In this document: positions 1 to 12,344 of the stretch, in pieces | Position numbering within the stretch: position 1 is the first letter of the stretch | Layout of the letters: the number at the start of each line of letters is the position of its first letter | NCBI GenBank assembly: GCA_002429965.1 | Contig: DJBG01000117.1 | Location: 34,177-47,172, forward strand | Direction of reading: 5' to 3' | Length of the DNA: 12,996 nucleotides | Origin: Hungatella sp. UBA5982 | GTDB lineage: Bacteria; Bacillota; Clostridia; Lachnospirales; Lachnospiraceae | Notes under the pieces: generated by a model | What the model saw: only the letters and a program-made list of their open reading frames with translations | Told to the model about the DNA's origin: nothing | The model's database searches: none | Made by a program: the position numbers and the translations under genes

Positions 1-1275
1 TTTACCTACTTGCGAATCCACTCCGTAGCTGCCTTGGTGCAGCTCAACAATTTTTTTTACAATAGACAGTCCAAGACCGGTTCCTGTGATCGCACGTTTA
101 TGCCTTTTATCAATTTTATAATATCTGTCCCAAATGTAAGACAGATTATCCTTGCCAATGCCCTCACCATGATCTTCCACTTCAATTCTGACCAGTTCGT
201 TTATGATTTTTTGCCGAATGATAATAGTCAAATCGTTTGTGCTGTAATGAATTGCGTTCGTCAGCAAATTATAGATTGCCTGTGTTATTTTAACTTCATC
301 CGCATTTACGAAGACCTCCTCGTCATGTTCGAAAACAAGGCTGTAATTTTCTTTTTTAACCAAGTCGGCAATTCTGCTAACGGTTTTATCAATGCTTTCA
401 GTAATATTATAGACTGCCGTGTTTAGCTCCATTGTGCCGGTTTCCAATCGGGAGACATCAAGAATATCATTTACTAAAGAGGAAAGCCGCTGGGTTTCAT
501 CCATGATCGTCTGTGTTTCTTCCGAAGTGATTTCATCAGGGAAATCATGCATCATTTCAGCATGGCTATATATTAGAGCAAGAGGAGTTCTCAAATCATG
601 GGAGATATTAGCCATAAGTTCGCGCCTTAACCGTTCCACCTTTGAAAGTTCCGAAGCAGAATGATTCAATGTATCCGATAATTCATGGATTTCTCTGTAG
701 CCCTTACCTGAAAAATGAATATCATAGTTTCCAGTTGCCAGAATTTTTGCGCTCTTATTCAGTTTTTCAATCGGTTTTGAAACGGTTTTTGCAATGATAA
801 ATGCCAGAACAATGGATAAAACAAACATAATGCCAGTAACATAATACAACTGAACTTTTATCGTAGAAATCGTTGCGTTGACAGGAGATATAATTGCATA
901 AAAAGTAAGCGAGACGGTTCTGCCATCAGACGTGACAAAATTTCTTATTTCGGTTATTGCCTGCCGCATTTGAGGTCTGTTATCAGGGTTTGGCCTGTTA
1001 TCGGGATTTGGCCTGTTTGGCGGTATGAAATCATGTGACGGAGTCACAAGTATTTCCGAATCGTCGGCAAGCTGCATTATAATTTGATTGAGATTGGGAT
1101 TGTCAATATTTTTTTCTATCAAAGCAATCGCGTTGTTTATTTCTTTTCTTCGAATATTTTCATACATTTTACTTAGAAATACTGTTTCAAACAGCCATAA
1201 AACAACAAGAAGCAACGCGCAGAAACCAAGTAAAAAGATAAAGATTTTCCACATTAACCGCTGTGATTTTTTCAT
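1..1275 (-). CDS. Sensor histidine kinase, partial (C-terminal end beyond the left edge)
   Basis: Membrane histidine kinase, presumably the partner of the response regulator just upstream. 425 residues are visible. Seen in order: TM1 at about 10-30; an extracytoplasmic loop of about 110 residues with a duplicated RPNPDN element at about 88-101; TM2 at about 142-163; HAMP at about 163-215; a HisKA box with phosphoacceptor His226 in ISHDLRTP; then an ATPase domain with N box (ITQAIYNLLTNAIHYS), G1 (DHGEGIG) and G2 (GTGLGLSIVKKIVE). Only the last strand of the ATPase domain should be missing, and the reading frame is open at position 1. The ATG at 1275 lies 3 nt after the regulator stop, with GAGGG inside the regulator's last codons as ribosome binding site, so the two genes are co-transcribed and probably translationally coupled. 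The short sensor domain matches no named fold I recognise; the signal is unknown. Family assignment is firm, the physiological role is not. Confidence 0.95.
   Translation of the reverse strand, partial: MKKSQRLMWKIFIFLLGFCALLLVVLWLFETVFLSKMYENIRRKEINNAIALIEKNIDNPNLNQIIMQLADDSEILVTPSHDFIPPNRPNPDNRPNPDNRPQMRQAITEIRNFVTSDGRTVSLTFYAIISPVNATISTIKVQLYYVTGIMFVLSIVLAFIIAKTVSKPIEKLNKSAKILATGNYDIHFSGKGYREIHELSDTLNHSASELSKVERLRRELMANISHDLRTPLALIYSHAEMMHDFPDEITSEETQTIMDETQRLSSLVNDILDVSRLETGTMELNTAVYNITESIDKTVSRIADLVKKENYSLVFEHDEEVFVNADEVKITQAIYNLLTNAIHYSTNDLTIIIRQKIINELVRIEVEDHGEGIGKDNLSYIWDRYYKIDKRHKRAITGTGLGLSIVKKIVELHQGSYGVDSQVGK
979..1014. repeat. Two tandem 18-bp repeats in the kinase sensor loop
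   Basis: Two adjacent 18-bp copies (979-996 and 997-1014) differ at two positions and encode a repeated Arg-Pro-Asn-Pro-Asp-Asn element in the extracytoplasmic loop of the histidine kinase. A third, partial copy continues as RP. This looks like a small in-frame duplication in a likely flexible segment. No function is claimed. Confidence 0.8.
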
Positions 1276-1278
1276 ATG

Positions 1279-1965
1279 CTAGCCCTCGAACCGATAACCT
1301 AATCCCCGTAAAGTAGTAATAAACTTTGCATAAGGGCCTAAGGATTTTCTCAGTAACTTCATGTGTGTATCCAGCGTCCGGTCATCGCCGTAATAATCAA
1401 ATCCCCATACTTCTGTGAGAATTTTTTCGCGTGGAACAGCGATGTTTTTATTTCGAATCAAGAAGAATAGCAGATCATATTCTTTTGGGGCAAGATTTGC
1501 AAGAATGCCGTCAATTGAAACCTTATAGGCGGTTAAATCTGCTTCAAATCCCTCTTTTCGGAATATGACATGTCCATTGTCATTATCACTTGCAGCCGCG
1601 TTTTTCTGTGTTCTGCGCAGGATAGCATTTACACGCATCATGATCTCCTTAGAAGAAAAAGGCTTAACTACATAATCGTCAATGCCAACCTCAAACCCTA
1701 AAACCTTGTCATATTCCTCCCCCCGTGCTGATAGCATAATAACGGGAGTATCTAATGTTTTTCTGATTTCTTTTACCGCTGAAAAGCCATCCAGTTCCGG
1801 CATCATAATATCCATTATAATGATGTCAAAGGATTCCTTGCGGCAGGCCTCAACAGCTTCCATTCCGTCAGCTGCTTCAACAACCTCATGTCCTTCAAAG
1901 ACCGCATATCTTTTAAGTACGGTTCTAAGTCCGCTTTCATCGTCACAAACCAATATTTTTGCCAT
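1279..1965 (-). CDS. OmpR-family DNA-binding response regulator
   Basis: Two-component transcription regulator of 228 residues, the normal length for the OmpR/PhoB family. The receiver domain (about 1-115) has acidic residues Asp8/Asp9, phosphoacceptor Asp52 (IIIMDIMMPELDG), Ser79 and Lys101 (VVKPF). A C-terminal winged helix (about 130-228) ends in the typical RGLGYRFEG, with the recognition region DDRTLDTHMKLLRKSL. The ATG at 1965 has AAGGTGG 7-8 nt upstream. A separate extended -10 promoter precedes it, and the cognate kinase follows after 3 nt. OmpR-type regulators bind tandem direct repeats with about 11-bp period. Exactly such repeats occur in front of the two upstream transcription units (5429-5466 and 6391-6439), so those are its likely targets; that link is inference. 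The specific regulon name is not recognisable from sequence. Confidence 0.97.
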   Translation of the reverse strand: MAKILVCDDESGLRTVLKRYAVFEGHEVVEAADGMEAVEACRKESFDIIIMDIMMPELDGFSAVKEIRKTLDTPVIMLSARGEEYDKVLGFEVGIDDYVVKPFSSKEIMMRVNAILRRTQKNAAASDNDNGHVIFRKEGFEADLTAYKVSIDGILANLAPKEYDLLFFLIRNKNIAVPREKILTEVWGFDYYGDDRTLDTHMKLLRKSLGPYAKFITTLRGLGYRFEG

Positions 1966-1989
1966 AGTTTCACCACCTTGTTATCCATA

Positions 1990-2018
1990 ATTATAGCATG
2001 AAAGCAAATGAGTAGCCA
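1990..2018 (-). promoter_or_regulatory. Extended -10 promoter of the response regulator-kinase pair
   Basis: On the minus strand TGCTATAAT is a perfect extended -10 (hexamer 1990-1995, TG at 1997-1998). A weak -35 (TGGCTA, 2013-2018) lies 17 bp upstream. Transcription would begin near 1983, giving a leader of about 18 nt before the regulator ATG at 1965. It lies just downstream of the hairpin at the end of the CotH operon, so the two-component genes can be expressed independently. Confidence 0.65.
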
Positions 2019-2026
2019 GTACAAGG

Positions 2027-2048
2027 GGCTGAAGGATTGCCTTCAGCC
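2027..2048 (-). terminator. Hairpin after the CotH gene, possible weak terminator
   Basis: Perfect 9-bp inverted repeat (GGCTGAAGG / CCTTCAGCC) with a 4-nt loop, 12 nt past the CotH stop. In the minus-strand transcript it is followed by CCUUGUACUGG, a poor U tract. It may therefore be a weak or partial terminator, or a 3'-end stabilising hairpin, with some read-through into the response regulator gene. On the plus strand the downstream sequence is richer in T, but no plus-strand gene ends here. Confidence 0.5.
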
Positions 2049-2060
2049 GTTTGTATTTTA

Positions 2061-3998
2061 TCAGTAGGTTTTTTTGGCTCTCATTATGAATATGATTGCT
2101 CCGGTTAGAAGTATAAGTGATACAAATACACTCACCGCATATGTTGGATCTAATGTGTTTGCGGAGGCAGCCTTACTTTGCTGGTTAGCTGCGTTCCCGC
2201 CGGGCATCCTGTTTGTCATTTCCGCCGCCTGCGTAATTTGTTCTTCTGTCAAGCCCAATTCCAAAAGCTGTTTTTTAACCTCATCACTTATCACCCCGCC
2301 ATTTTCCTGCAAGATAGGCATGGCTTTCTGGATAAGCTCCCGATCCATACCTCCCATACCACCGAAGCCGCCTTCACCCCGGTCTCCTTCACCCCGGTTG
2401 CCTCCGCCCATCATACTGCCCAATGCGGACAGATTAATACCGGAAGCATCAATTAACGCATCCTTCTCTGAATTTTGTCCATCTGTCGTTGAAGGAATGG
2501 TTCCGTTAAGCTGCCCGTCAATACTCTGAGCACGAAGGGTTCCCAGTTCAATAAAGACCGGAAGAGATGCTTCATATTCTTCGTATGTGGCAAAGGCGGA
2601 AACATCGTTTTTAACATAGTTATTGATTTTTGCGTCTAAATCCATTACAGTTTCCGCAAAAACACCGCTTACAAAATAACCATCCACGATCTGTCGCAGG
2701 TATTCATGGTATTTATCCTTATATTCCGGAACTTCAAGCAATTTATTAATGAGGGGGCGGTCTTCCATGCTTACACCGCTGACTGGTGTGTCGATGGGGA
2801 AGTTTACAACGTCACTGGCGCTATCACTCTGGAATCCGCCAAAGGCAAGACCGTAATCCCAAGGCAAAACAGTAATTTTTCCATCGCGTTCATAAATGTA
2901 ATAATTTTGCGCCATACCAGATGTATAGCTGTCAAGATTTACAACCACCGTATGTGCTGCCAGATAGCGAAGAATTTCGTCCACATCAAAATACTGCTCC
3001 AGATTTGTTCCTTCATTTAAGTTTTTTATTGCGGTAATAACACGCTGTTTGTCTTTATCGGAGTTCTTAAGAAATTGGGCATTGTTAAATATTGAACTAT
3101 AACTGCTTATATTATCATCAACATAAACAAGATCTCCGCCGCCGCGTCCGCCCATACCGTCCATTGGAAAACCACCCATACCGCCGTTTTGGTTATCCGG
3201 TTCTTCCAGTTGGGCACCAGCATCATCGCTATCCGGCTGCCCCTGATTACCTTGCCGGCTTTGCCCGCCGGCGTCCTGCTGTCCATTAGTGCTGCTTTCT
3301 GGGTTTTCTTGATTATTTGGTGCAGCTCCATTTTGTCCGGCATCATTTTCTGCGAAGTTTTCGCCTTGACCCATTGTGGTTTTGACGCTGTAGAGCTGTC
3401 CGCCGGATGTATCATAAACCCTGTCAAGAAAAGATTTTTCGTACCGTTCCAATGCCAGGCAGAAGCCGAAATCTTCTCCATTAACTGTTACGCTGGCATA
3501 ATTCATAAGCGGTGTTTCCACACCTATATATTTCATAATGTCGTATGACAGATAATCTTTCATATAGGTGGTATCACCCAATAGGTTGTTAATGCAAAAG
3601 TTGTCCAGCCCATAACATGTCTGCCCTTTCACATAATAATTAAATTTAAAATTAATGCTATAACGGTCACTGTCGTCCATACTGACTACCTGTGACAAGC
3701 TTGAATTGCCTTTTGTGCGTATACCGACTGTATTAAATAATTCGCCGTTTATGACTAAATCCGCTGAAATGTATTCTTTTTCTATGGCGTTGTCAAGCAT
3801 TTCCTGCCACTCATTTTCATCGACACGTATATCTATCGTAAGGATCTCATCCCCAAACAGCTTTGATTCGTAGTCCATCACCTTTTTATTTTGATTCACT
3901 CCGGCGGCATAAACGATCATGACACAGGCGAACAGCGACAAGCAAACAAGCAGTGCCGTGATTTTTGCTATATGTTTGCTGGTTATCATTGCCTTCAC
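2061..3998 (-). CDS. CotH-type kinase family protein, membrane-anchored
   Basis: 645 residues. An N-terminal signal or anchor segment (about 10-32) is followed by a CotH kinase domain (about 45-480) on the outer face of the membrane, a Gly/Met-rich segment (about 527-552), a helical segment (about 553-595) and a C-terminal TM helix (about 617-639) ending in RAKKTY. CotH proteins are atypical protein kinases, first known from spore-coat assembly. Landmarks seen are RTKGNSS (94-100), LERYEKSFL (183-191), NLDSYTSGMAQNYYIYE (354-370) and LPWDYGLAFGG with Asp381, the probable metal or catalytic aspartate. A hydrophilic Gln/Asn/Gly/Pro-rich stretch (about 209-288) is inserted inside the kinase domain. 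Last gene of the VTC-DUF4956-CotH operon, 21 nt after DUF4956. Nothing here points to sporulation; a surface phosphorylation role in the envelope module is inferred. The substrate is unknown. Confidence 0.9.
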   Translation of the reverse strand: MKAMITSKHIAKITALLVCLSLFACVMIVYAAGVNQNKKVMDYESKLFGDEILTIDIRVDENEWQEMLDNAIEKEYISADLVINGELFNTVGIRTKGNSSLSQVVSMDDSDRYSINFKFNYYVKGQTCYGLDNFCINNLLGDTTYMKDYLSYDIMKYIGVETPLMNYASVTVNGEDFGFCLALERYEKSFLDRVYDTSGGQLYSVKTTMGQGENFAENDAGQNGAAPNNQENPESSTNGQQDAGGQSRQGNQGQPDSDDAGAQLEEPDNQNGGMGGFPMDGMGGRGGGDLVYVDDNISSYSSIFNNAQFLKNSDKDKQRVITAIKNLNEGTNLEQYFDVDEILRYLAAHTVVVNLDSYTSGMAQNYYIYERDGKITVLPWDYGLAFGGFQSDSASDVVNFPIDTPVSGVSMEDRPLINKLLEVPEYKDKYHEYLRQIVDGYFVSGVFAETVMDLDAKINNYVKNDVSAFATYEEYEASLPVFIELGTLRAQSIDGQLNGTIPSTTDGQNSEKDALIDASGINLSALGSMMGGGNRGEGDRGEGGFGGMGGMDRELIQKAMPILQENGGVISDEVKKQLLELGLTEEQITQAAEMTNRMPGGNAANQQSKAASANTLDPTYAVSVFVSLILLTGAIIFIMRAKKTY

Positions 3999-4019
3999 CT
4001 CCCATCTGTATTTTTCTCA

Positions 4020-4688
4020 TTACATATAATAATCGCCATTATAGCTAACAAGGACTGCATTTGAAACACCGTTTATAGTAAGCAGATCATTAACGAATTT
4101 CACTGAGGAATCTTTGAGGCGAACCTCAACAGTCAGCTCAATGCCGTTTCTTGACACGTTCTTGGATTTGACAAGATGCTTTTTCGTATGGTTTTTAAGC
4201 ATTGATGTTGATTGGGTTTCGGCATTCTCATCATCGCAGTTTATTACCACTACATAAGGAGTATCTGCAGATTTCCTGTTGACAAACACAAACAGGACGA
4301 GACCTATAGCAATGGAACCTATTACGGCAAGGGGAATTAAACCTGCGCCGACAATGATACCTGTGGTAATGGACCAGAACAGATATACGAGGTCAAGCGG
4401 TTCCTTTACAACCGTACGGAAACGGACAATGGATAGTGCGCCCACCATACCCAGCGACGTAATTAGGTTTGAAGATACTGCCAATATAACAAGCGTTGTG
4501 ATTAAGTCCATTGCAATCAGGGTAATACCGAAAGATGAGGAGTACATGACACCTATGTAGGTCTTTTTATATACCATGAAAATAAACAAACCAATCACAA
4601 ATGAAATACCTAAAGCAGCTATAATATCCGTTATGGAAAATGAAGCAGCCTTATTGAGGAAGGTGAAATTCAACAGTTGATCTAACAT
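4020..4688 (-). CDS. DUF4956 domain-containing membrane protein
   Basis: Integral membrane protein of 222 residues. Hydrophobic segments lie at about 21-40, 54-74, 100-118 and 119-137. The signature between them, GALSIVRFRTVVKEPLDL then YLFWSITTG (about 83-110), is characteristic of DUF4956. The C-terminal part (about 143-222) is soluble, with alternating strands and helices, possibly a ferredoxin-like or ACT-like fold. I chose the ATG at 4688 because AAAGGAG ends 8 nt before it; the in-frame GTG at 4697 overlaps that ribosome binding site and is unlikely to be used. The gene sits 19 nt after the VTC gene and 21 nt before CotH. DUF4956 proteins often accompany VTC-domain proteins. A role as membrane partner or channel for a polymerase product is speculation, and the biochemical function is not established to my knowledge. 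Confidence 0.9.
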   Translation of the reverse strand: MLDQLLNFTFLNKAASFSITDIIAALGISFVIGLFIFMVYKKTYIGVMYSSSFGITLIAMDLITTLVILAVSSNLITSLGMVGALSIVRFRTVVKEPLDLVYLFWSITTGIIVGAGLIPLAVIGSIAIGLVLFVFVNRKSADTPYVVVINCDDENAETQSTSMLKNHTKKHLVKSKNVSRNGIELTVEVRLKDSSVKFVNDLLTINGVSNAVLVSYNGDYYM

Positions 4689-4707
4689 AATTAACACTCC
4701 TTTTTAT

Positions 4708-5382
4708 TTATATAAGTCTTGATACTACATATTTGGAAAATTCAGTCTCGTTCCTGCTATCTACCCGAACCAGCTGACGAATGATTTCAGGGATAAAACC
4801 ATCATATTTTATTTCAAGCACTATGGCGCTTGCTGCCGGAATTGTAACAAGCTCCGGGTTAAATAAGCCGCTTACATTGTTTGAAGTTCGGATGTTACTG
4901 TCAAATGTTATACGGACATTACCGGCATGATAGACATAAGTTTCTCTTTTATAGTCCACAATCGTTCGAGGCCGCAAGTTCTGATAGTGCATTTTTGTAT
5001 ATAGTTCCATCAGCAATTCCTGACCGCTTTCTTTCAATAATCCCCAATTTCCGGCCAGTATACCTTCGCATTGCTCTACGGTTATTGGTGCGTTTTTTTT
5101 GTAACATAACCTGTTTGCTTTACTCTTTTTTTCAAGCCTGATAAATGAAGGGTCATCGTTATAAAACCGGATTCTGAATTTTTCTCGTCTGCTGGCCCCG
5201 GACAGCTTTTCGACCACTGCTTTGTCCGCGTAATTGTCGAAATACAGGCTCCTGATTATATAGGAACCATCATCCAATGCATTCTCGTCAAATTTTGCAA
5301 TGTGTCTTAGCCTAGACGATAACTGCATATAGTCAGAATAATTGATATTCAATTTATGTTCGTGCCTTCCTTTTTCATCCAT
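4708..5382 (-). CDS. VTC-domain protein (polyphosphate polymerase-like)
   Basis: 224-residue soluble protein that is essentially one VTC domain, the tunnel-shaped fold of the yeast Vtc4 polyphosphate polymerase (triphosphate tunnel superfamily). The basic and acidic tunnel residues typical of the family are visible: RHEHK (6-10), RSLYFDN (44-50), REKFRIRFYN (66-75), RLEKKSK (82-88), RPRTIVDYKRETYV (137-150), RITFD (157-161), LEIKYDG (189-195) and a final FSKYVV (215-220). It is at the short end for such proteins but has all the core elements. The start at 5382 has a near-ideal AGGAGGTG 6-8 nt upstream. First gene of a three-gene operon behind a promoter with 11-bp-spaced TTCAG repeats. Catalysis (ATP to polyphosphate, metal-dependent) follows from the family; a non-catalytic phosphate-binding role cannot be excluded. 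Confidence 0.88.
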   Translation of the reverse strand: MDEKGRHEHKLNINYSDYMQLSSRLRHIAKFDENALDDGSYIIRSLYFDNYADKAVVEKLSGASRREKFRIRFYNDDPSFIRLEKKSKANRLCYKKNAPITVEQCEGILAGNWGLLKESGQELLMELYTKMHYQNLRPRTIVDYKRETYVYHAGNVRITFDSNIRTSNNVSGLFNPELVTIPAASAIVLEIKYDGFIPEIIRQLVRVDSRNETEFSKYVVSRLI

Positions 5383-5414
5383 GTTCTCACCTCCTAACTA
5401 CTGATGAGTAATAT

Positions 5415-5466
5415 GTTATAGTGTTTGACTGAATTTCACTTGTCGCCTGTCTGAACTTTATCTGAA
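5415..5466 (-). promoter_or_regulatory. Promoter region of the VTC operon with TTCAG direct repeats
   Basis: On the minus strand TTCAG occurs at 5462-5466, 5451-5455 and 5429-5433, with starts 11 and 22 bp apart, so all lie on one DNA face. The first two (GTTCAGATAAAGTTCAGAC) form a compact tandem site. A -10-like TATAAC lies at 5415-5420, with no recognisable -35, which fits a promoter needing an activator. The same pentamer array precedes the repeat-protein gene, and the neighbouring OmpR-family regulator is the likely binder. The copy at 5429 may be incidental, because the other two already sit about 31 bp from the -10, as in the sister promoter. Confidence 0.65.
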
Positions 5467-5522
5467 CTTTTTGTCCCCAACCATAGCGATGACAAACTAT
5501 ATTAAATCATCTGATGAACATG

Positions 5523-5554
5523 AAAAAACAGAGCACAATATATTGCGCCCTGTT
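5523..5554 (-). terminator. Rho-independent terminator of the repeat-protein gene
   Basis: Minus-strand RNA forms a 12-bp stem (5543-5554 with 5527-5538, including two G-U pairs) with a UAUA loop, followed by a run of six U at 5523-5528 that partly overlaps the stem end. It starts 15 nt after the stop of the secreted repeat-protein gene and separates that gene from the VTC operon. Confidence 0.85.
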
Positions 5555-5569
5555 TGATTTTACATCTTA

Positions 5570-6274
5570 CTAAATCTCCGTAGTGTCTTCTGTTTTATTG
5601 CCATGAAATCCACCTCGGCCAATACCGGAAATCTCGGGATTCTTGCCCTCGGCAATATCATTCAAAGCCTGGTCATACTGCTCTTGTGTGATGTTGCCAT
5701 CAGCAAGCAGCTGTGCTAATTTTTCCTTCATCTTTGATTGCATTTCCGCTTTTTGTTCCTCGGTTATTTCAGGCCTGTTCTTTTCGCCGGACTCGTCTCT
5801 GTCTCTTCCGGGCATTTCAGGAGTTTTGCCCTCGGCAAGATCACTCATAGCCTGGTCATACTGCTCCTGCGTGATTTTGCCGTCAGCAAGGAGTTGTGCG
5901 AATCTTTCCTTCATCTTTGATTGCATTTCCGCTTTCTGCTCTTCGGTCAATTCGGTACTGTCATTTTCACCGTATCCGCCTCGGCCTCTGTCGAACATTT
6001 CGGGCATTTTACCCTCGGCAATATCACTCATAGCCTGATCATACTGCTCCTGTGTGATTTTGCCGTCTGCAAGGAATTGTGCTAATTTTTCTTTCATCTG
6101 TGATTCGATTTCTTCAAATGATAATTTGGTTTTCTCTAAGCTGGTTGTAACAGCAGAAACGTTTGTTTTCAATGTACTCGTTGTATTTGTGTTTGCAGCG
6201 AATGCGGTGACTCCCGATGCTGCTAATAAGCCTACGGCCATTACTGTAGAAGCGACAACAGCGATTTTTTTCAT
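5570..6274 (-). CDS. Secreted protein with three 61-residue helical repeats
   Basis: 234 residues. A clear signal peptide (basic MKK, hydrophobic core about 4-20, probable cleavage after the TAFA region near 26-28) precedes three repeats with an exact period of 61 residues, at about 53-95, 111-156 and 172-217. Each contains a segment like EMQSKMKEKLAQLLADGKIT followed by QEQYDQAMSDIAEGK, then a charged Gly/Arg-rich linker. The LLADGKITQEQYD turn between two helices resembles SHOCT-type helical hairpins; I infer this and do not recognise a named family for the whole protein. The start at 6274 was chosen because AAAGGA ends 8 nt upstream; 6277 is an adjacent alternative. It lacks an LPXTG motif, lipobox or C-terminal anchor, so it should be released or bound non-covalently. 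It has its own promoter with five 11-bp-spaced TTCAG-like sites and its own terminator. Function unknown. Confidence 0.88.
   Translation of the reverse strand: MKKIAVVASTVMAVGLLAASGVTAFAANTNTTSTLKTNVSAVTTSLEKTKLSFEEIESQMKEKLAQFLADGKITQEQYDQAMSDIAEGKMPEMFDRGRGGYGENDSTELTEEQKAEMQSKMKERFAQLLADGKITQEQYDQAMSDLAEGKTPEMPGRDRDESGEKNRPEITEEQKAEMQSKMKEKLAQLLADGNITQEQYDQALNDIAEGKNPEISGIGRGGFHGNKTEDTTEI
5627..6118. repeat. Three in-frame 183-bp repeats within the secreted-protein gene
   Basis: The landmark GCCCTCGGC or ACCCTCGGC begins at 5645, 5828 and 6011 on the plus strand, giving a period of exactly 183 bp (61 codons). The core of each unit, around the LADGKITQEQYD coding segment, is nearly identical in DNA, while the linkers between cores have diverged. 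This indicates internal duplication, and copy number could vary between strains by recombination. Confidence 0.9.
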
Positions 6275-6352
6275 CATTAACATCCTTTCATTTTTATACG
6301 TTTGACGTGACAACAGGTATGGATTTTTCTCTCCTTTCTTTTTTCTGTCTAT

Positions 6353-6439
6353 ATCATAAATCACTTATTTGAATTACCAATGTTTGGCAGCTGATTATTT
6401 GCTGAATTTGTGCTGAACATTTGTTGAACTTGCACTGAA
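6353..6439 (-). promoter_or_regulatory. Promoter and five-fold 11-bp direct-repeat operator of the repeat-protein gene
   Basis: Read on the minus strand, pentamers TTCAG, TTCAA, TTCAG, TTCAG and ATCAG begin at 6439, 6428, 6417, 6406 and 6395, each exactly 11 bp from the next; the six intervening bases are A-rich and variable. Downstream are a -35-like TTGGTA (6375-6380), a 16-bp spacer and a -10-like TATGAT (6353-6358). The array ends 10 bp upstream of the -35, a typical activator position. Tandem 11-bp repeats are the usual binding form of OmpR/PhoB-family regulators, and such a regulator is encoded at 1279-1965. Confidence 0.72.
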
Positions 6440-6561: not shown

Positions 6562-8064
6562 TTATTTTTTACGCAGCAAATGATCCTTCGGAGAATATCC
6601 AAACATTTTTTTAAAACGTTTGCTATAATAAAAAGCATCTGTATATCCTACCAGTTCCGCAATGTCCGATATCTTATATTGATTGGATTCCAATAATATC
6701 TTAGAGGCTTCCATACGTATCATGGTGATATACTGAAGCAGGGATTCATTATTTACTTTTTTAAAGACACTGCCCAAATAGGAAGGGTTTAATTGAAATA
6801 AGTTCGCAAGCCGTGTTACGGTTAATTCTGGATCGGAATAATGTTCATCAATATATGCAATGATTTTATTGCTTAAGGAGAGGTCGGAAGGGATGGTTAC
6901 ATTTTCAGTCATGCATAACCGCCCAAATGCAAGAATGGTACTTTTAACCTGGTTCAGCCGATATTCTTCATCAATGATCTGGGAGGCAGATTCAGCCGGA
7001 TTGTGGCTGAATTCTACCTGGCCGCTATAATGGATATGATAAGTAGTAAAAAATTCCGTAACGATTAAGTATAGGTACTTCACATCGTGTGTTTCTTCTA
7101 CTGGCTGAAACAGGCTTTGGATATAAGCTTCCAGCCCCTTTGGATCCTTGCTGTTTAAATAATATAGAATCGTTTGTCTTACTTTAGATAAATCAGCGGA
7201 TCTATTTTCCCAGGTAAGTTCTTCTGTCAGGATAAGCTTTGATTCAGGATTAAAATACCGGTGGTTGAGGGCGTGAAGATTTTTTTTATAATCAGGCAGC
7301 CAGGATTCTGTCAATGGGATACAGTCTCCAAGCACTAAAAATGTGTAGGAACGGCTTTCTGGCATATCGTTTTCCAAAGCTTCTTTTAACTGCTGCCTTT
7401 CCTCTTTCTTATGAAGGAAAAATTGTATGGTGTAGGCATAATCCAATTCCTTAAAATATTCACAGTCCAGTCCATGACGGCGAATCTTAGCTACCAGTTC
7501 TGAAATAAAGTCTTCATTTTCTTCATAGATAAAAGCACCTAAATAAAGGGTGTAATCATAAGCTGATACCTCAGGATATCTGGCAGTTAATTGTTCAATG
7601 CTTTGACAACCATTTAATACATTGGATAGAAACGTGCATTTTTCAAAGTGATAATACTTTTGAATTTGTTTCTGTTGTTTTTTTAACAATTCTATTTTTT
7701 CTTTGGTATCCTTTAAAACAGCGGTTAAGGTAGAAGCGTCTACAGGCTTTAACAGATAATCCATAACACCGAACCGCATCGCAGAGCGTGCATATTCAAA
7801 GTCATTATAGCCAGATAATAGAATAATTTTGGTGGAAGGGTAATTCCTGTATACAGATTCCGCCACCTCAATTCCATTCATACGGGGCATTTTTATATCC
7901 AGCAGGATAAGGTCAACCGGATGCTTTTTTAATAACTCAAGAACTTCTAATCCGTTTTCGGCTTCCCCTATATAATGAATGGCTAGTTCTTCCTGTGGAA
8001 TGATTTTGATAATTCGCTGTCTGATAAAGTACTCGTCATCAGCAATTATAATATTAAGTGGCAT
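6562..8064 (-). CDS. YesN-type AraC-family response regulator
   Basis: Two-component transcription factor of 500 residues, normal for the YesN type. The N-terminal receiver domain has Asp9/Asp10, phosphoacceptor Asp56 (LILLDIKMPRMNG), Ser84 and Lys106 (YLLKPVD). A long middle region (about 130-390) has no clear motif. A C-terminal AraC double helix-turn-helix (about 400-500) contains LTVTRLANLFQLNPSYLGSV and ISDIAELVGYTDAFYYSKRF, ending near FGYSPKDH. I chose the ATG at 8064 rather than the in-frame ATG at 8088 because a perfect AAGGAGG lies 9 nt before 8064; the upstream reading would encode that ribosome binding site as protein. It overlaps the 3' end of the kinase gene by 11 bp, implying translational coupling. 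The likely target is the divergent sugar ABC operon. Its role in sugar sensing is inferred from context. Confidence 0.95.
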   Translation of the reverse strand: MPLNIIIADDEYFIRQRIIKIIPQEELAIHYIGEAENGLEVLELLKKHPVDLILLDIKMPRMNGIEVAESVYRNYPSTKIILLSGYNDFEYARSAMRFGVMDYLLKPVDASTLTAVLKDTKEKIELLKKQQKQIQKYYHFEKCTFLSNVLNGCQSIEQLTARYPEVSAYDYTLYLGAFIYEENEDFISELVAKIRRHGLDCEYFKELDYAYTIQFFLHKKEERQQLKEALENDMPESRSYTFLVLGDCIPLTESWLPDYKKNLHALNHRYFNPESKLILTEELTWENRSADLSKVRQTILYYLNSKDPKGLEAYIQSLFQPVEETHDVKYLYLIVTEFFTTYHIHYSGQVEFSHNPAESASQIIDEEYRLNQVKSTILAFGRLCMTENVTIPSDLSLSNKIIAYIDEHYSDPELTVTRLANLFQLNPSYLGSVFKKVNNESLLQYITMIRMEASKILLESNQYKISDIAELVGYTDAFYYSKRFKKMFGYSPKDHLLRKK

Positions 8065-9775
8065 CAGTGGATACCTCCTTTTTTCCAATGGTTATGGTAG
8101 AGATACAGCCGCCCTGAGGGTGATTGGCAATGGTAAGCCCATATTCGCTGCCGTAATAGAGTTGGATTCTCTGGTGAATATTTTTGATGCCAAAATGAGT
8201 ATTACCTATAGTCCATATGCTTTCATAATTCTCTTCCCTGATTCCGATTCCGTTATCCCGGATGGTGAATAAAATGGAATCAGGAGTTTCAGTTACAAGA
8301 ATATCTAATTGACCTTTTCCATTCAGCTCTTTGATTCCGTGATAGATACTGTTTTCCACGATGGGCTGCAATAAGAGCTTGAGGCAGGGATAGCCTGATA
8401 TTCTGGAATCACAGTTGATATGAAAGTCAAACCTGTTAAAGTATCTTACTCTCATGATTCTTAGATATGCTTCTGTAATCGCCAGTTCCTCCTTAACCGT
8501 AATGTGGGTATGACCGTTGCTTAGCCCCTGACGGTAAAACGCAGAAAGATTCATGACCAGGTCAATGAGAGTCTCCTTTTCATCTAATTCTGCAAGAGAA
8601 CAGATATTGTCCAGAGTATTATATAAAAAATGTGGGTTTACCTGCTGCTGAAGCAGGTCCAGGGCTACTTTATTCTTCATTTTTTCTGAATTCAGTAAAT
8701 CATTCTTTAACTTTTTCTGCGCAATAATCATGCTGTTGAATTCCTCGAATAGAAGACCGATATCACTATCGTTATAAGACTCATTGAATGGAATCCATTC
8801 CCCCTCCTTTACCCTCTGGGTATGAGAGATCAGCTGGTAGATCGGAGAGGTAATTGTACGGGATACTTTACGGGAGACATTAAGACAGGCAATAATGCAG
8901 AGCAGGGCCATAATAATGGATATTCCCAAGGTGGTAAAGGTTGGTTGTAAAAAATAGAGCAGATTGATTTCGTTGACGAGATACCAGTTCAGCGCAGGAA
9001 AATGTTCAGAAAAAATAATCGTGCTCATAGTCAGCTTGTAATTGCTCCTGTTGATGTGGTTAAGCTTCTTAATATTTTCATAGCGCCTCATTAATGGAAT
9101 GGAACCATCTGAGCTTTGTACATTGCCATCTGAGTCTACAATAAAAAGCCTGCTGAAGTTACTTACATTATCTTTATAGATATCTGAAATAGTACTTTCG
9201 GGAATGGCGATTTCCACATACCCAAGCATGGTACCTGTGGAGCTGCTGTAAAACGGCAGCATGAGAGACAGGACATGTATCTCTGTGTCACGCTCCTTAT
9301 TGGAGTATTTTATCTCTGGTATCCAGATTTTCCGGTCAGAAGCAGAAGTATCCCGAAAATTTAATGGATAGGGATATATTTCCGTGGTAGCAATCAGCGC
9401 ATGTTCCGGTGAGTAGATACTGACAGAATGAATAAAGGGAGTAGACTGGATGATATGATTGATCTCGGTTTTCAGATTCATCTGGTCGATGGCATTAAAC
9501 TCCTTGTTATTGTTATTAAATTTAGATACAATGGCCTGTACGCTCTTATCCGTTATAATGGTTTTGGAATAGTTATTAACAGATGCGAGATAATAATCTA
9601 ACTGATTGGAAATATAATCCAGCTGCCTGACAGCAGAATTAGTCTCTAATGCCAGAGTATGTTTATAAAATACGACAGAAGTACTGATCAATAATATTAT
9701 AATGAATAACAGCAGCGTCTGAAACATAGACCGGAAAAATCTCGAATTAATAGAAGTTATTTTTTGAGCCTTCAT
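8054..9775 (-). CDS. YesM-type sensor histidine kinase
   Basis: 573-residue membrane sensor kinase. TM1 lies at about 18-37, followed by a large extracytoplasmic sensor region (about 38-275, probably dCache-like), TM2 at about 280-298 and HAMP at about 299-352. Then comes a His_kinase domain of the LytS/YesM type with phosphoacceptor His382 in QQQVNPHFLYNTLDNI, and a C-terminal ATPase domain with N box (LLQPIVENSIYHGI) and G1 (IRDNGIGI). The ATG at 9775 has AAGGGA 6 nt upstream. It is first in a two-gene operon with the YesN-type regulator and divergent from a sugar-binding lipoprotein. Such kinases usually respond to an extracellular oligosaccharide, directly or via the loaded binding protein. 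The ligand cannot be told from sequence. Confidence 0.95.
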   Translation of the reverse strand: MKAQKITSINSRFFRSMFQTLLLFIIILLISTSVVFYKHTLALETNSAVRQLDYISNQLDYYLASVNNYSKTIITDKSVQAIVSKFNNNNKEFNAIDQMNLKTEINHIIQSTPFIHSVSIYSPEHALIATTEIYPYPLNFRDTSASDRKIWIPEIKYSNKERDTEIHVLSLMLPFYSSSTGTMLGYVEIAIPESTISDIYKDNVSNFSRLFIVDSDGNVQSSDGSIPLMRRYENIKKLNHINRSNYKLTMSTIIFSEHFPALNWYLVNEINLLYFLQPTFTTLGISIIMALLCIIACLNVSRKVSRTITSPIYQLISHTQRVKEGEWIPFNESYNDSDIGLLFEEFNSMIIAQKKLKNDLLNSEKMKNKVALDLLQQQVNPHFLYNTLDNICSLAELDEKETLIDLVMNLSAFYRQGLSNGHTHITVKEELAITEAYLRIMRVRYFNRFDFHINCDSRISGYPCLKLLLQPIVENSIYHGIKELNGKGQLDILVTETPDSILFTIRDNGIGIREENYESIWTIGNTHFGIKNIHQRIQLYYGSEYGLTIANHPQGGCISTITIGKKEVSTDAT

Positions 9776-9838
9776 ATGGATTCCCTTCTGTATGCAATGC
9801 GTTGTCTTGGCTTCATGGAAGACTTAAATATAACAGTA

Positions 9839-9867
9839 ATATTAGTACGTTTTATTGGCTGTGTCCA
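9839..9867 (-). promoter_or_regulatory. Probable promoter of the sensor kinase operon
   Basis: On the minus strand there is a -35 TGGACA (9862-9867), a 17-bp spacer and a -10 TAATAT (9839-9844). The -35 matches consensus at five of six positions and the -10 at four. Transcription would start near 9832, leaving a leader of about 57 nt. The -35 lies between the arms of the 9-bp inverted repeat at 9850-9897. Confidence 0.5.
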
Positions 9868-9897
9868 TATTGAATTTGTGTAAATAAACCAATAAAA
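9850..9897. promoter_or_regulatory. 9-bp inverted repeat in the divergent promoter region, candidate operator
   Basis: Perfect arms TTTTATTGG (9850-9858) and CCAATAAAA (9889-9897) are separated by 30 bp. The arms bracket the kinase -35. A smaller palindrome, ATGTA-5 bp-TACAT (9918-9932), lies between this element and the importer promoter. The AraC-type regulator encoded next door is an obvious candidate binder, but its site preference is unknown; this is inference. Confidence 0.4.
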
Positions 9898-9951
9898 GGC
9901 TGATTTTGAAAAGTGACATGTAAAATATACATAAAAACTATAAAATGACCA

Positions 9952-9980
9952 TTCATTGTATGGTGCTATTTTCCTATAAT
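9952..9980 (+). promoter_or_regulatory. Probable promoter of the sugar ABC importer operon
   Basis: A perfect -10 TATAAT lies at 9975-9980, with a weak -35 (TTCATT, 9952-9957) 17 bp upstream. The leader would be about 44 nt and includes the AAGGAGG of the binding-protein gene. The poor -35 is consistent with dependence on an activator. Confidence 0.55.
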
Positions 9981-10030
9981 AGGATTGTGAAGAGGAAGAA
10001 TATCTGAAATAATAAGGAGGAAACAAAATT

Positions 10031-11356
10031 ATGAAAATAAAAAAAGTGATGGCTCTTTCATTGGCAGGCATACTGAGTTTTTCTATGCTGACTGCCTGCG
10101 GGTCTAAAACAGACAGCAAAAGCAAGGAGTCAGATGATGAAAAGGTTACAATCAGACTTTTAACAAGAATGGCTGGAACCTCAACTCAAGTAGGCATTTA
10201 TAACGATATCTTGAATGAATTTAAAAGTAAACATCCAGAAGTGACCATTATTGACGACTCCCAGGGTGATGAATCGGCATTTAATAATATCCTGACGACT
10301 GATATTGCTTCCGGAACCATGGCTAACATCTTCCGAATCCAAGGTGTTGCAAATCTTTCCGACTATATCGATAATGGCTTATTATTAAATCTTCAGCCAT
10401 ATCTTGATGCAGATAAAGAATGGAGTAGTGGTTTTACGGAGGGTTCCCTTTCCTATTATCAGGTACCGGGACATGAAGGCACCTATGCAATTCCAATGGA
10501 ATCCGGCCTGATTGGTGTTTATTATAATGAAATGCTTTTTAAGGAAGCAGGAATTGAAAAATTCCCCGAGACCTGGGAACAGCTGTTAGATGCAATTGCA
10601 AAGTTCAAAGAAAACGGAATTATCCCAATTGCTATGGGAGCCCAGTCAACTTATATGGCGGGTCATTTACATGACCAGATCTTCTACAAATGGATGGGAA
10701 CAGAAGCAGCAAAATTATTGGGAAACAGAGAGATGAAGTGGACGGATGAGGGCGTCGTAAAGACATTACAGTTTGAAAAAGATTTAATTGATGCAGGTGC
10801 CTTTGATCCAAGTGCTGCAGGTATCACAGATAATATTGCTTTAACTCAATTTCAGCAGGGGGAAGCTGCAATGGTGATTACCGGACCTTGGAACATCAGT
10901 ACATTTACAGATAAATCAGCCACTCCTGTGTCAGATAATATTAAGGTTGCAAAGTTTCCCTATTTTGAAGAAAAACCTGAATTCAAAAATCAGGATATGC
11001 AGATCCTGAGTCCTTACATGGTAAGCGGTAAATTAGAAGGAAAAGAATTAGACTTGACGATTGAATTATTAAAAATGCTAACCGGTAAAGAAGCAGCTAA
11101 GAGATTTGCAGAAGAAGCGGCTTTCTTGATTCCAAGAACCGATCTGGATTTGGATAAGTCAAAATGTACCGACTTATTTATCCAGAATGTAGAGATTGGA
11201 GGAACTTCTGAGGGCATCGGTGTTGACGTATTCGACTTTGATCCTTTGACTTCCATGCAGGATAGAACAAGAAATTCAATTGTAAGCTTATTTACAGGGG
11301 CCTCTGCCCAGGATGCAGCATCAGTAATCCAGGCTGAGATTGATAATGCAAAATAA
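10031..11356 (+). CDS. Extracellular sugar-binding lipoprotein of an ABC importer (family 1 type)
   Basis: 441-residue substrate-binding protein. A lipoprotein signal peptide has lipobox LTAC, with Cys23 as the predicted lipidated residue, then a Ser/Lys/Asp-rich linker (about 24-40). The mature fold has hallmarks of bacterial family 1 carbohydrate-binding proteins: a first strand VTIRLLTRM, GLIGVYYNEMLFKEAGI near 160, PETWEQLLDAIAKFKENG near 180, and QFQQGEAAMVITGPWNIS near 275-292. The ATG at 10031 is preceded by AAGGAGG with a 10-nt gap. It is first in the importer operon, ahead of two permeases, and divergent from a YesM/YesN pair. It would deliver a mono- or oligosaccharide to the permeases on the outer membrane face. 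The exact sugar cannot be predicted. Confidence 0.95.
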   Translation: MKIKKVMALSLAGILSFSMLTACGSKTDSKSKESDDEKVTIRLLTRMAGTSTQVGIYNDILNEFKSKHPEVTIIDDSQGDESAFNNILTTDIASGTMANIFRIQGVANLSDYIDNGLLLNLQPYLDADKEWSSGFTEGSLSYYQVPGHEGTYAIPMESGLIGVYYNEMLFKEAGIEKFPETWEQLLDAIAKFKENGIIPIAMGAQSTYMAGHLHDQIFYKWMGTEAAKLLGNREMKWTDEGVVKTLQFEKDLIDAGAFDPSAAGITDNIALTQFQQGEAAMVITGPWNISTFTDKSATPVSDNIKVAKFPYFEEKPEFKNQDMQILSPYMVSGKLEGKELDLTIELLKMLTGKEAAKRFAEEAAFLIPRTDLDLDKSKCTDLFIQNVEIGGTSEGIGVDVFDFDPLTSMQDRTRNSIVSLFTGASAQDAASVIQAEIDNAK

Positions 11357-11363
11357 ATAATCT

Positions 11364-11460
11364 GGAATTTCAGAATTCATTTCTAAATATATGTAGATAT
11401 TTCTAACTATATTTGATATTGAATTATGAAATTCCTTTTCATTATAAGGAGGAATTTCAT
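11364..11460 (+). promoter_or_regulatory. Alternative RNA pairing region before the first permease gene
   Basis: The 103-nt gap between binding protein and permease holds three complementary segments: A GGAATTTCA (11364-11372), B ATGAAATTCC (11426-11435) and C GGAATTTCAT (11451-11460). B pairs perfectly with C over 10 bp with a 15-nt loop, covering the last two bases of the AGGAGG (11447-11452) and reaching the first base of the start codon. B can instead pair with A over 9 bp, freeing the ribosome binding site. A small hairpin (AAATAT/ATATTT) lies between A and B. No U-tract terminator is seen. The layout could lower permease translation relative to the binding protein; this is inferred from pairing alone. 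Confidence 0.45.
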
Positions 11461-12344
11461 TGATAACATTAAAAAACAGAAAAGTAAAAGTGTACATAGC
11501 ACTGTTTTTGCTGCCGGCATTGATCGTATATCTTTTATTTCAAATTGTACCTTTAATTCTGGCGTTTTACTTTTCACTGGTTGAGTGGAATGGTATCTCG
11601 GGTGCGGCTCTTAAATTTGTTGGACTTAAAAATTATATCGATGCATTTCATAACGCGGACTTTTTACTTTCCATTAAAAATATGGTGAAAATGGTATTCT
11701 TCAGCGTATTATTCCATACGCCCATTGCTTTATTAACGGCAGTTGCAATTAATACCAAATGTAAAGGGTACCGGGCATTTAAAGCTCTATTTTTTGTGCC
11801 TACGGTTTTTCCGTTAACTTCCGTTGGTTTGATGTGGTACTTTGTGTTCATGCCCACCGGTTCTCTCAATGCTTTGTTAAAGAACATCGGTCTGGCCGAC
11901 CGGGTAGTTCCCTGGCTGGTGGATCCTGCAACTGCAATGAATACCATTGTATTTGTTAATATATGGGCTGGTATCGGCTACTATATGGTCATTCTCCTCG
12001 CAGGACTTACGACAATTTCAGATGAGCTATATGAGGCAGCCTCTATTGACGGAGCTACTGCCGTTCATAAGTTCTTTGAGATCACGGTTCCTATGTTAAA
12101 ATCTACAATCTCCATGTGCATTTTAATGGATATTATCGGCTCTGTTAAAGTTTTTGACCTGGTATTTGCAATGACCGGCGGAGGGCCAAACGTTCTGACA
12201 AATCTTCCTACAACTTTAATGTACAATGAGGCATTTAAATACAGCCATTATGGACTTGGGAGCGCTATAGGCATTATTATTCTGATTGCCTGCCTGGCAG
12301 GAACATTAGGAAGTAATTTTATAATGTCCCGTAAACACGATTAA
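11460..12344 (+). CDS. Carbohydrate ABC transporter permease, MalF/UgpA type
   Basis: 294-residue membrane permease with about six hydrophobic segments (first at about 12-40). The cytoplasmic EAA loop, YEAASIDGATAVHKFFEITV (about 191-210), contacts the ATPase subunit. Length fits the family without the extra N-terminal part of enteric MalF. It starts with TTG at 11460, preceded by AGGAGG with a 7-nt gap; the gene reads MITLKNRK from there. The ribosome binding site lies partly in a hairpin (11426-11460). It forms the translocation path with the second permease, 12 nt downstream. Substrate specificity is unknown. Confidence 0.95.
   Translation: MITLKNRKVKVYIALFLLPALIVYLLFQIVPLILAFYFSLVEWNGISGAALKFVGLKNYIDAFHNADFLLSIKNMVKMVFFSVLFHTPIALLTAVAINTKCKGYRAFKALFFVPTVFPLTSVGLMWYFVFMPTGSLNALLKNIGLADRVVPWLVDPATAMNTIVFVNIWAGIGYYMVILLAGLTTISDELYEAASIDGATAVHKFFEITVPMLKSTISMCILMDIIGSVKVFDLVFAMTGGGPNVLTNLPTTLMYNEAFKYSHYGLGSAIGIIILIACLAGTLGSNFIMSRKHD

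What the first reader, a model, noticed from the sequence alone, without database searches (positions are those of the whole stretch)
6391..6439. Five TTCAG-like sites at exact 11-bp spacing, shared with the VTC operon promoter
On the minus strand the pentamers TTCAG, TTCAA, TTCAG, TTCAG and ATCAG recur every 11 bp directly upstream of the repeat-protein promoter. A second set with the same pentamer (5429, 5451, 5462; spacing 22 and 11) precedes the VTC operon. Regular 11-bp direct repeats are the known binding form of OmpR/PhoB-family regulators, and one is encoded in the same cluster. In both promoters the array begins about 31-33 bp from the -10 (taking 5451 as the proximal site). The two units therefore look like one regulon, with five sites for the secreted protein against two or three for the operon, possibly giving graded responses.
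Basis: partly seen in the sequence, partly recalled or inferred. Interest (0 to 1): 0.75.

Follow-up and report, generated by a model that had tools for sequence, protein, structure and literature searches.

The report
Operator ladder of a clostridial regulator
Short DNA words repeated every 11 bases before two promoters look like docking sites of a neighbouring switch protein, and the same sites recur beside this switch in related bacteria, so they probably mark one small cell-surface control circuit.

Summary
Aligned on the -10 hexamers, the two minus-strand promoters carry 11-bp ladders in one register: VTC TTCAG/TTCAG/GACAA/TTCAG, 10 bp, TAACAT; repeat protein the same four-site core (TTCAG/ATCAG/AACAT/TTCAA, 10 bp, TATGAT) plus three upstream sites. 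Related genomes tie the ladder to the OmpR-type response regulator at 1279-1965. In 15 of 15 further genomes with an orthologue at least 77% identical, one ladder lies before the VTC operon (12), a Cthe_2159-VTC operon (1) or the regulator (2); around diverged regulators (63-72%) it was found in 1 of 20. In six relatives lacking this VTC operon, the regulator stands divergent from a secreted DUF2680 protein and both promoters carry the core. Best explanation: tandem regulator molecules bind each ladder in place of a -35 element, as for CiaR and PhoB-type regulators. Targets look envelope-related: VTC/DUF4956/CotH, regulator and kinase, secreted helical repeat proteins and, in some relatives, HtrA proteases and Cthe_2159 proteins. 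Binding, signal and graded response are untested. A new regulon of a known kind.

The parts
6353..6358 (-). -10 hexamer TATGAT of the repeat-protein promoter, 10 bp after the proximal half-site
   Evidence: same gap and hexamer in the six DUF2680 promoters
6369..6406 (-). Four-site operator core of the repeat-protein promoter: TTCAG 6406-6402, ATCAG 6395-6391, AACAT 6384-6380 (weak), TTCAA 6373-6369
   Evidence: 18 of 20 letters; half-site order nearly identical to six DUF2680 promoters
6413..6439 (-). Upstream extension of the ladder: TTCAG 6417-6413, TTCAA 6428-6424, TTCAG 6439-6435
   Evidence: the two inner sites are kept in L001 and L114, the distal one is not
5429..5466 (-). Four-site operator of the VTC promoter: TTCAG 5466-5462, TTCAG 5455-5451, GACAA 5444-5440 (weak), TTCAG 5433-5429
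   Evidence: 20 of 20 letters; conserved before VTC in relatives
5413..5418 (-). -10 hexamer TAACAT of the VTC promoter, 10 bp after the proximal half-site
   Evidence: no -35 at 16-18 bp
5570..6274 (-). Secreted repeat protein (234 aa), three helical-hairpin repeats, SHOCT-like
   Evidence: low-confidence model with three helix pairs
5526..5555 (-). Terminator-like hairpin after the repeat-protein gene
4708..5382 (-). VTC domain protein (polyphosphate polymerase type)
   Evidence: PF09359
4020..4697 (-). DUF4956 membrane protein
   Evidence: PF16316
2061..3998 (-). CotH kinase-family protein
   Evidence: PF08757
1990..2048 (-). CotH-regulator gap: hairpin 2048-2027 and extended -10 TATAAT 1995-1990; no operator (best score 12 of 20)
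1279..1965 (-). OmpR-type response regulator, the proposed binder of both ladders
   Evidence: PF00072 and PF00486; co-occurrence with the operator
1..1275 (-). Histidine kinase, its C-terminal end cut by the window edge

Best explanation
The ladders are arrays of half-sites for the response regulator encoded at 1279-1965. Phosphorylated regulator molecules bind head to tail, one per 11-bp step; the proximal pair ends 10 bp before the -10 hexamer and stands in for the missing -35 element, so both transcription units are activated together. The regulator and its kinase lie downstream of the VTC operon genes, so the circuit probably feeds back on itself. The repeat-protein promoter has the same four-site core extended by up to three half-sites, which should favour cooperative filling. 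The regulon serves the cell envelope, and a secreted helical repeat protein is a recurring member in this genus. Shown: site positions, register, -10 distance, conservation, co-occurrence with orthologues of the regulator, lack of a -35 at the VTC promoters. Inferred: binding, activation rather than repression, cooperativity, operon structure, feedback, envelope role. Unknown: the signal.
For: Regulator has receiver and Trans_reg_C domains. VTC operator conserved: 15 of 69 other VTC loci with enough upstream DNA score 16 or more of 20 (null of 700 sequences: 99th percentile 14, maximum 16), half-site letters kept while spacers vary. Search by regulator instead of VTC: 15 of 15 new genomes with an orthologue of 77% or more hold one operator of 18-20 in the region taken, 0 in Markov copies, against 1 of 20 regions around 63-72% regulators. 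Six genomes without this VTC operon: operator before the regulator and before the divergent DUF2680 gene, 12 of 12 promoters at 16-19. Recognition helix nearly unchanged in orthologues of 71% or more. No -35: 12 of 13 VTC promoters match TTGACA at 3 of 6 or fewer. Published geometry of this regulator family: direct repeats (PMC4832192), 11-nt units (PMC4415409), ten bp to the -10 for CiaR (PMC3091779).
Against: No binding or expression data. L003 has the regulator at 80% but no operator before its VTC gene, though its genome has one before a second VTC operon. L019 scores 17, but its genome shows no regulator match at E 1e-60, and L008 and L014 (19 and 20) show only 61-62% regulators; these are incomplete assemblies or different regulators. 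In L274 no kinase ORF lies beside the regulator. Ladders with TTCAG half-sites precede another secreted protein in genomes lacking this regulator, so the pentamer alone is not specific. The repeat protein is in 2 of 17 genomes tested. One further 16-point hit in L269 fits no promoter. The six genomes are close kin.
Confidence: 0.85

Rival explanations
1. The ladders are bound by a different OmpR-family regulator of the genome, and the cluster's regulator only travels with the VTC operon.
For: The same genus uses very similar ladders (TTCACA type, and TTCAG/TTCAG/RTCAC type) in genomes without this regulator; L008, L014 and L019 have the operator but no close orthologue found in incomplete assemblies.
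Against: In six genomes without this VTC operon the operator sits at the regulator itself, and 15 of 15 against 1 of 20 follows regulator identity.
Confidence: 0.09
2. The neighbouring AraC-type response regulator (6562-8088) controls the repeat-protein promoter.
For: It is the neighbouring gene.
Against: In G305 the AraC-regulator side is kept (91% identity over 1,533 bp) while the window stretch from about 75 to 6369 has no match and only a relic operator without a clear -10 remains. The same core recurs beside the OmpR-type regulator in six genomes.
Confidence: 0.02
3. Chance periodicity of an AT-rich intergenic region.
For: With any pentamer and spacings 8-13 allowed, 6 of 2000 random sequences do as well for the repeat-protein ladder.
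Against: 0 of 2000 at 11 bp for either promoter; conservation across genomes.
Confidence: 0.01

Closest known systems
CiaR/CiaRH of streptococci, with CiaX in S. mutans
   Same: Direct repeat at 11 bp, last repeat ten bp before the -10, final G important, htrA in the regulon, autoregulation, and in S. mutans a third component with a calcium-binding domain (PMC3091779 passages; PMC8317062 passages).
   Different: Half-site TTTAAG against GTTCAG here; recognition helix VVEVYVSKVRKKL against TLDTHMKLLRKSL; four in-register half-sites here; no small RNA target found for this regulator; targets here are VTC/DUF4956/CotH and helical repeat proteins.
PhoB/PhoP and M. tuberculosis PhoP or RegX3 type regulators
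   Same: Direct repeats in 11-nt units, tandem binding, tighter binding to three or four repeats (PMC4415409 and PMC4832192, passages and one section). S. coelicolor PHO motif GTTCACC is close to GTTCAG. RegX3 is the best PDB match.
   Different: No NCBIfam equivalog cut-off met by the 25 best of 99 models; no phosphate genes seen among the targets.
CssR (secretion stress, B. subtilis)
   Same: OmpR-type regulator with a TTCA-containing box and htrA targets (PMC6749698 passage and listing).
   Different: Canonical box TTTTCACA; CssR sequence was not compared here.
VTC/DUF4956/CotH accessory genes of Gram-positive Pel clusters
   Same: Same three protein types together (PMC7112168, passages).
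   Different: No Pel genes were seen in the window; the passages shown do not mention this operator.

Membership tests
OmpR/PhoB-family response regulator | Receiver domain plus Trans_reg_C winged helix | tested here: met
   PF00072 and PF00486 above cut-off
OmpR/PhoB-family operator | Direct-repeat half-sites about 11 bp apart near the -35 region | tested here: met
OmpR/PhoB-family operator | Bound by the phosphorylated regulator | not testable with these tools
   needs a footprint or gel shift
CiaR regulon | 11-bp repeat spacing and ten bp to the -10 | tested here: met
   against PMC3091779
CiaR regulon | Half-site TTTAAG | tested here: not met
   TTCAG in 27, 27 and 26 of 29 operators at sites 1, 2 and 4
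CiaR regulon | Recognition helix VVEVYVSKVRKKL | tested here: not met
   TLDTHMKLLRKSL (CiaR helix)
PhoB/PhoP (Pho regulon) | NCBIfam equivalog score for PhoB | tested here: not met
   186.5 of 270 and 181.5 of 296.2 bits
PhoB/PhoP (Pho regulon) | Response to phosphate starvation | not testable with these tools
   needs expression data
CssR | TTTTCACA box | tested here: not met
   half-site is GTTCAG (box from PMC6749698)
CpxP/Spy (LTXXQ) secreted regulators | Match to the LTXXQ Pfam model (PF07813, number recalled) | tested here: not met
   not among the Pfam matches of the window protein or of the six DUF2680 proteins; the low-confidence model found no PDB match at E up to 0.001
CiaX | Secreted calcium-binding third component acting on the kinase | not tested
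   analogy only; review passage

The most novel reading that the evidence does not exclude
A three-component envelope-sensing system of Clostridia: regulator, kinase and a secreted helical-hairpin protein (SHOCT-like or DUF2680) that is a recurring, strongly controlled partner and feeds back on the kinase outside the cell, as CiaX or CpxP do elsewhere; the VTC/DUF4956/CotH operon is a removable output module.
Probability: 0.3. Interest if true: 0.7.

Novelty: new member of a known kind. Interest (0 to 1): 0.52.

Why it matters
VTC-DUF4956-CotH operons recur in Clostridia (many of the loci) and I found no account of what they are for. This finding gives one group of them a specific regulator, a readable operator that predicted their control in new genomes, and companions (HtrA proteases, Cthe_2159 proteins, secreted repeat proteins) that point to an envelope response. 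It also shows regulator and operator moving together while VTC operons beside other regulators lack this operator, so the function of the module can be tested through its switch.

Tried and rejected
Strict TTCAG-N6-TTCAG as a regulon finder: in L. celerecrescens (G001) it gives 16 genome-wide matches against 3 for the reversed pattern. 3 of 16 are the VTC and repeat-protein promoters; of the other 13, 11 lie inside ORFs, one precedes a secreted-protein gene (L096) and one is unclear (L091). The pattern alone is too loose.

TTCAG 0/11/33 in 299 genomes of the family: 9 genomes hit, only G001 at the VTC place known to me. L099 has a four-site array with no regulator gene or sensible promoter beside it; the other seven hits were not followed.

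TTCACA ladders as part of this regulon: rejected. They occur in 25 of 25 genus genomes, the regulator at 75% or more in 9 of 25.

(16 genomes, up to 1 mismatch) also gave many one-mismatch hits that are inside genes or were not followed; I read 30 of its hits as loci.

Repeat-protein fold: mean pLDDT 57, no PDB match at E up to 0.001. The repeat protein is in 2 of 17 genomes tested and 8 of 391 of the class at E 1e-12, one of them L. celerecrescens, so it is not universal. Three of its distant relatives (in G685, G500, G720) have TTAAC ladders of the same geometry, seen by eye and not tested against chance.

Sister regulators (60-72%): 20 of 74 places looked at, neighbourhoods only. Relaxed TTCA ladders stand at some (8 hits against 0 in one Markov copy); not pursued.

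A generic test (identical pentamers, spacings 9-13, gaps 5-15) on 56 other VTC promoters showed a small excess at 11 bp; few cases. Rfam: two tRNA matches only in 7 sources.

Full report
WHAT IS THERE. The minus strand of the window carries, in order of transcription, a secreted repeat protein (5570-6274), then VTC (4708-5382), DUF4956 (4020-4697), CotH (2061-3998), an OmpR-type response regulator (1279-1965) and a histidine kinase (1-1275, cut by the window edge). The nearest named VTC homologues, 99% identical, are from Lacrimispora and Lachnoclostridium records. The pentamers are at the stated places and beyond chance. VTC: TTCAG 5466, TTCAG 5455, GACAA 5444, TTCAG 5433, N10, TAACAT. Repeat protein: TTCAG 6406, ATCAG 6395, AACAT 6384, TTCAA 6373, N10, TATGAT, preceded by TTCAG 6417, TTCAA 6428, TTCAG 6439.

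CONSERVATION OF THE VTC OPERATOR. A genome scan with an alignment of 22 VTC proteins gave 72 loci. With a score of 20 letters (three TTCAG, CA of the third site, and T, A, T of the -10), 69 of 72 had at least 100 bp held upstream; 15 of these 69 and the window scored 16 or more (11 of the 16 at 20); 700 random sequences had a 99th percentile of 14 and a maximum of 16. The letters between half-sites vary. Of the 15 loci, 9 encode the regulator at 71% or more in the same stretch, L005 a 58% one, and 5 (L008, L009, L010, L014, L019) none within the DNA held; the genome of L010 has it at 80% with a stop inside, those of L008, L009 and L014 have 61-66% relatives, and that of L019 has none at E 1e-60. 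L013 (16, equal to the null maximum) and L019 (17) are the weak end. VTC operons next to other regulators (28-36% identical) lack the operator. Against the pattern: L003 has the regulator at 80% but no operator before its VTC gene; its genome has one before a second VTC operon. L017 could not be scored (55 bp held).

TESTS BY THE REGULATOR. With the operator fixed, I searched by the regulator instead. In the genus group 9 of 25 genomes have it at 75% or more; 3 carry the VTC operon of this type, 6 do not, and 3 of those 6 have a diverged VTC operon (46-47%) beside another regulator. In the 6 the regulator stands divergent from a 262-266-aa secreted protein that passes the DUF2680 cut-off, and both promoters carry the four-site ladder: 12 of 12 promoters at 16-19 of 20, besides one stray 16 in L269. 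A kinase ORF follows the regulator in 5 of 6; none is listed in L274. The DUF2680 operators read TTCAG/ATCAG/AACAT/GTCAA, N10, TATGAT (second site AACAG in one), nearly letter for letter the half-sites of the window's repeat-protein core. These six are close kin, not six independent events. In the order and class searches (392 and 391 genomes) 15 further genomes have the regulator at 77% or more; the regions around all 15 hold exactly one operator each, at 18-20: before VTC in 12, before a Cthe_2159-VTC-DUF4956-regulator-kinase operon in 1 (L297), before the regulator in 2 (L293, L301; L293 lacks a good -10). Of 74 places with 60-72% regulators I took 20; one had the operator (L309). One Markov copy of all 470,689 bases gave none. 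Only neighbourhoods were scanned.

OTHER TARGETS. A pattern search with up to one mismatch on 16 genomes found, besides VTC: a second VTC operon with a Cthe_2159 gene in G325, and two HtrA-type proteases in G324. In Anoxynatronum buryatiense (L009) looser TTCA ladders precede the regulator and a Cthe_2159 gene next to the kinase. An HtrA gene follows VTC in L010. With sister regulators, HtrA-regulator-kinase occurs in L313 and L320, in L320 with VTC-DUF4956-CotH behind it. In L. celerecrescens the supported targets are the VTC operon and the repeat protein. In G305 the AraC-regulator side, a 73-bp piece of the kinase end and a relic repeat-protein operator remain while the window stretch between has no match, so the cluster was probably lost as a unit.

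MECHANISM. OmpR/PhoB regulators bind direct repeats as tandem dimers, and three or four repeats bind M. tuberculosis PhoP more tightly than two (PMC4832192, passages and one section). PHO boxes are two 11-nucleotide units (PMC4415409, passages). For CiaR the distance from the last repeat to the -10 is ten (PMC3091779, passages). The VTC promoters lack a -35: 12 of 13 match TTGACA at 3 of 6 or fewer, L012 at 4. The economical reading is that regulator tandems recruit polymerase in place of a -35. In the window the regulator and kinase lie downstream of CotH with a hairpin and an extended -10 between, so read-through feedback plus basal expression is likely but inferred.

THE SECRETED PARTNER. 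The repeat protein is rare (2 of 17 genomes), but a DUF2680 protein holds its place and its operator type in six relatives. Regulators of about 50% identity sit beside a small secreted DUF2680 protein in L182 and a similar sub-threshold protein in L183, and three distant relatives of the repeat protein have TTAAC ladders of the same geometry. This makes a feedback or sensing role plausible, as for CiaX of S. mutans (review PMC8317062, passages; the primary paper is not held). It is not shown.

LITERATURE. Searches listed no paper that I recognised as describing this regulon or an operator for VTC/DUF4956/CotH operons; the library holds open-licence papers only. The Pel-cluster paper (PMC7112168, passages) describes the protein trio as accessory genes; the C. 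perfringens paper (PMC2879425, passages) lists VTC and CotH genes together.

VERDICT. The graded-response idea is untested, and the distal site that makes five is not conserved.

Noticed in passing
L206-L208, L210, L211 (L209 diverged); 25 of 25 genus genomes: Intergenic elements, 2-5 per genome, with another ladder (TTCAC/TTCAC/ATCAA/GTCAC, N10, TATATT), no long gene behind, and a conserved hairpin with CTCC-rich tail and T-run about 100 bp on: possibly a family of regulator-controlled small RNAs like streptococcal csRNAs; no Rfam match.
   Followed up: partly
L096, L244, L245, L247, L251-L253, L255, L258, L259, L262, L264: A ladder TTCAG/TTCAG/RTCAC/NNCA before a gene for a 363-375-aa secreted protein (SLH-like by recall, not tested) in genomes with and without this regulator; another regulator must use it.
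   Followed up: partly
L004, L021, L032, L071 upstream of VTC: VTC operons beside other regulators show TTYAAG-N5-TTYAAG about 10 bp before a -10, the CiaR form; seen by eye in L032 and L071.
   Followed up: partly
L246 (G305) 1432-3054: Relic of the locus: 73 bp of the kinase end next to 46 bp of the repeat-protein operator and the AraC-regulator side.
   Followed up: partly
L018: A VTC/DUF4956 pair 58-68% identical on a contig titled Candidatus Bathycorpusculum, an archaeon by name: transfer or mis-binning.
   Followed up: no
window 6562-12344: AraC-type response regulator, sensor kinase, solute-binding protein and permease: looks like an ordinary ABC sugar-type transporter with its two-component system.
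   Followed up: no
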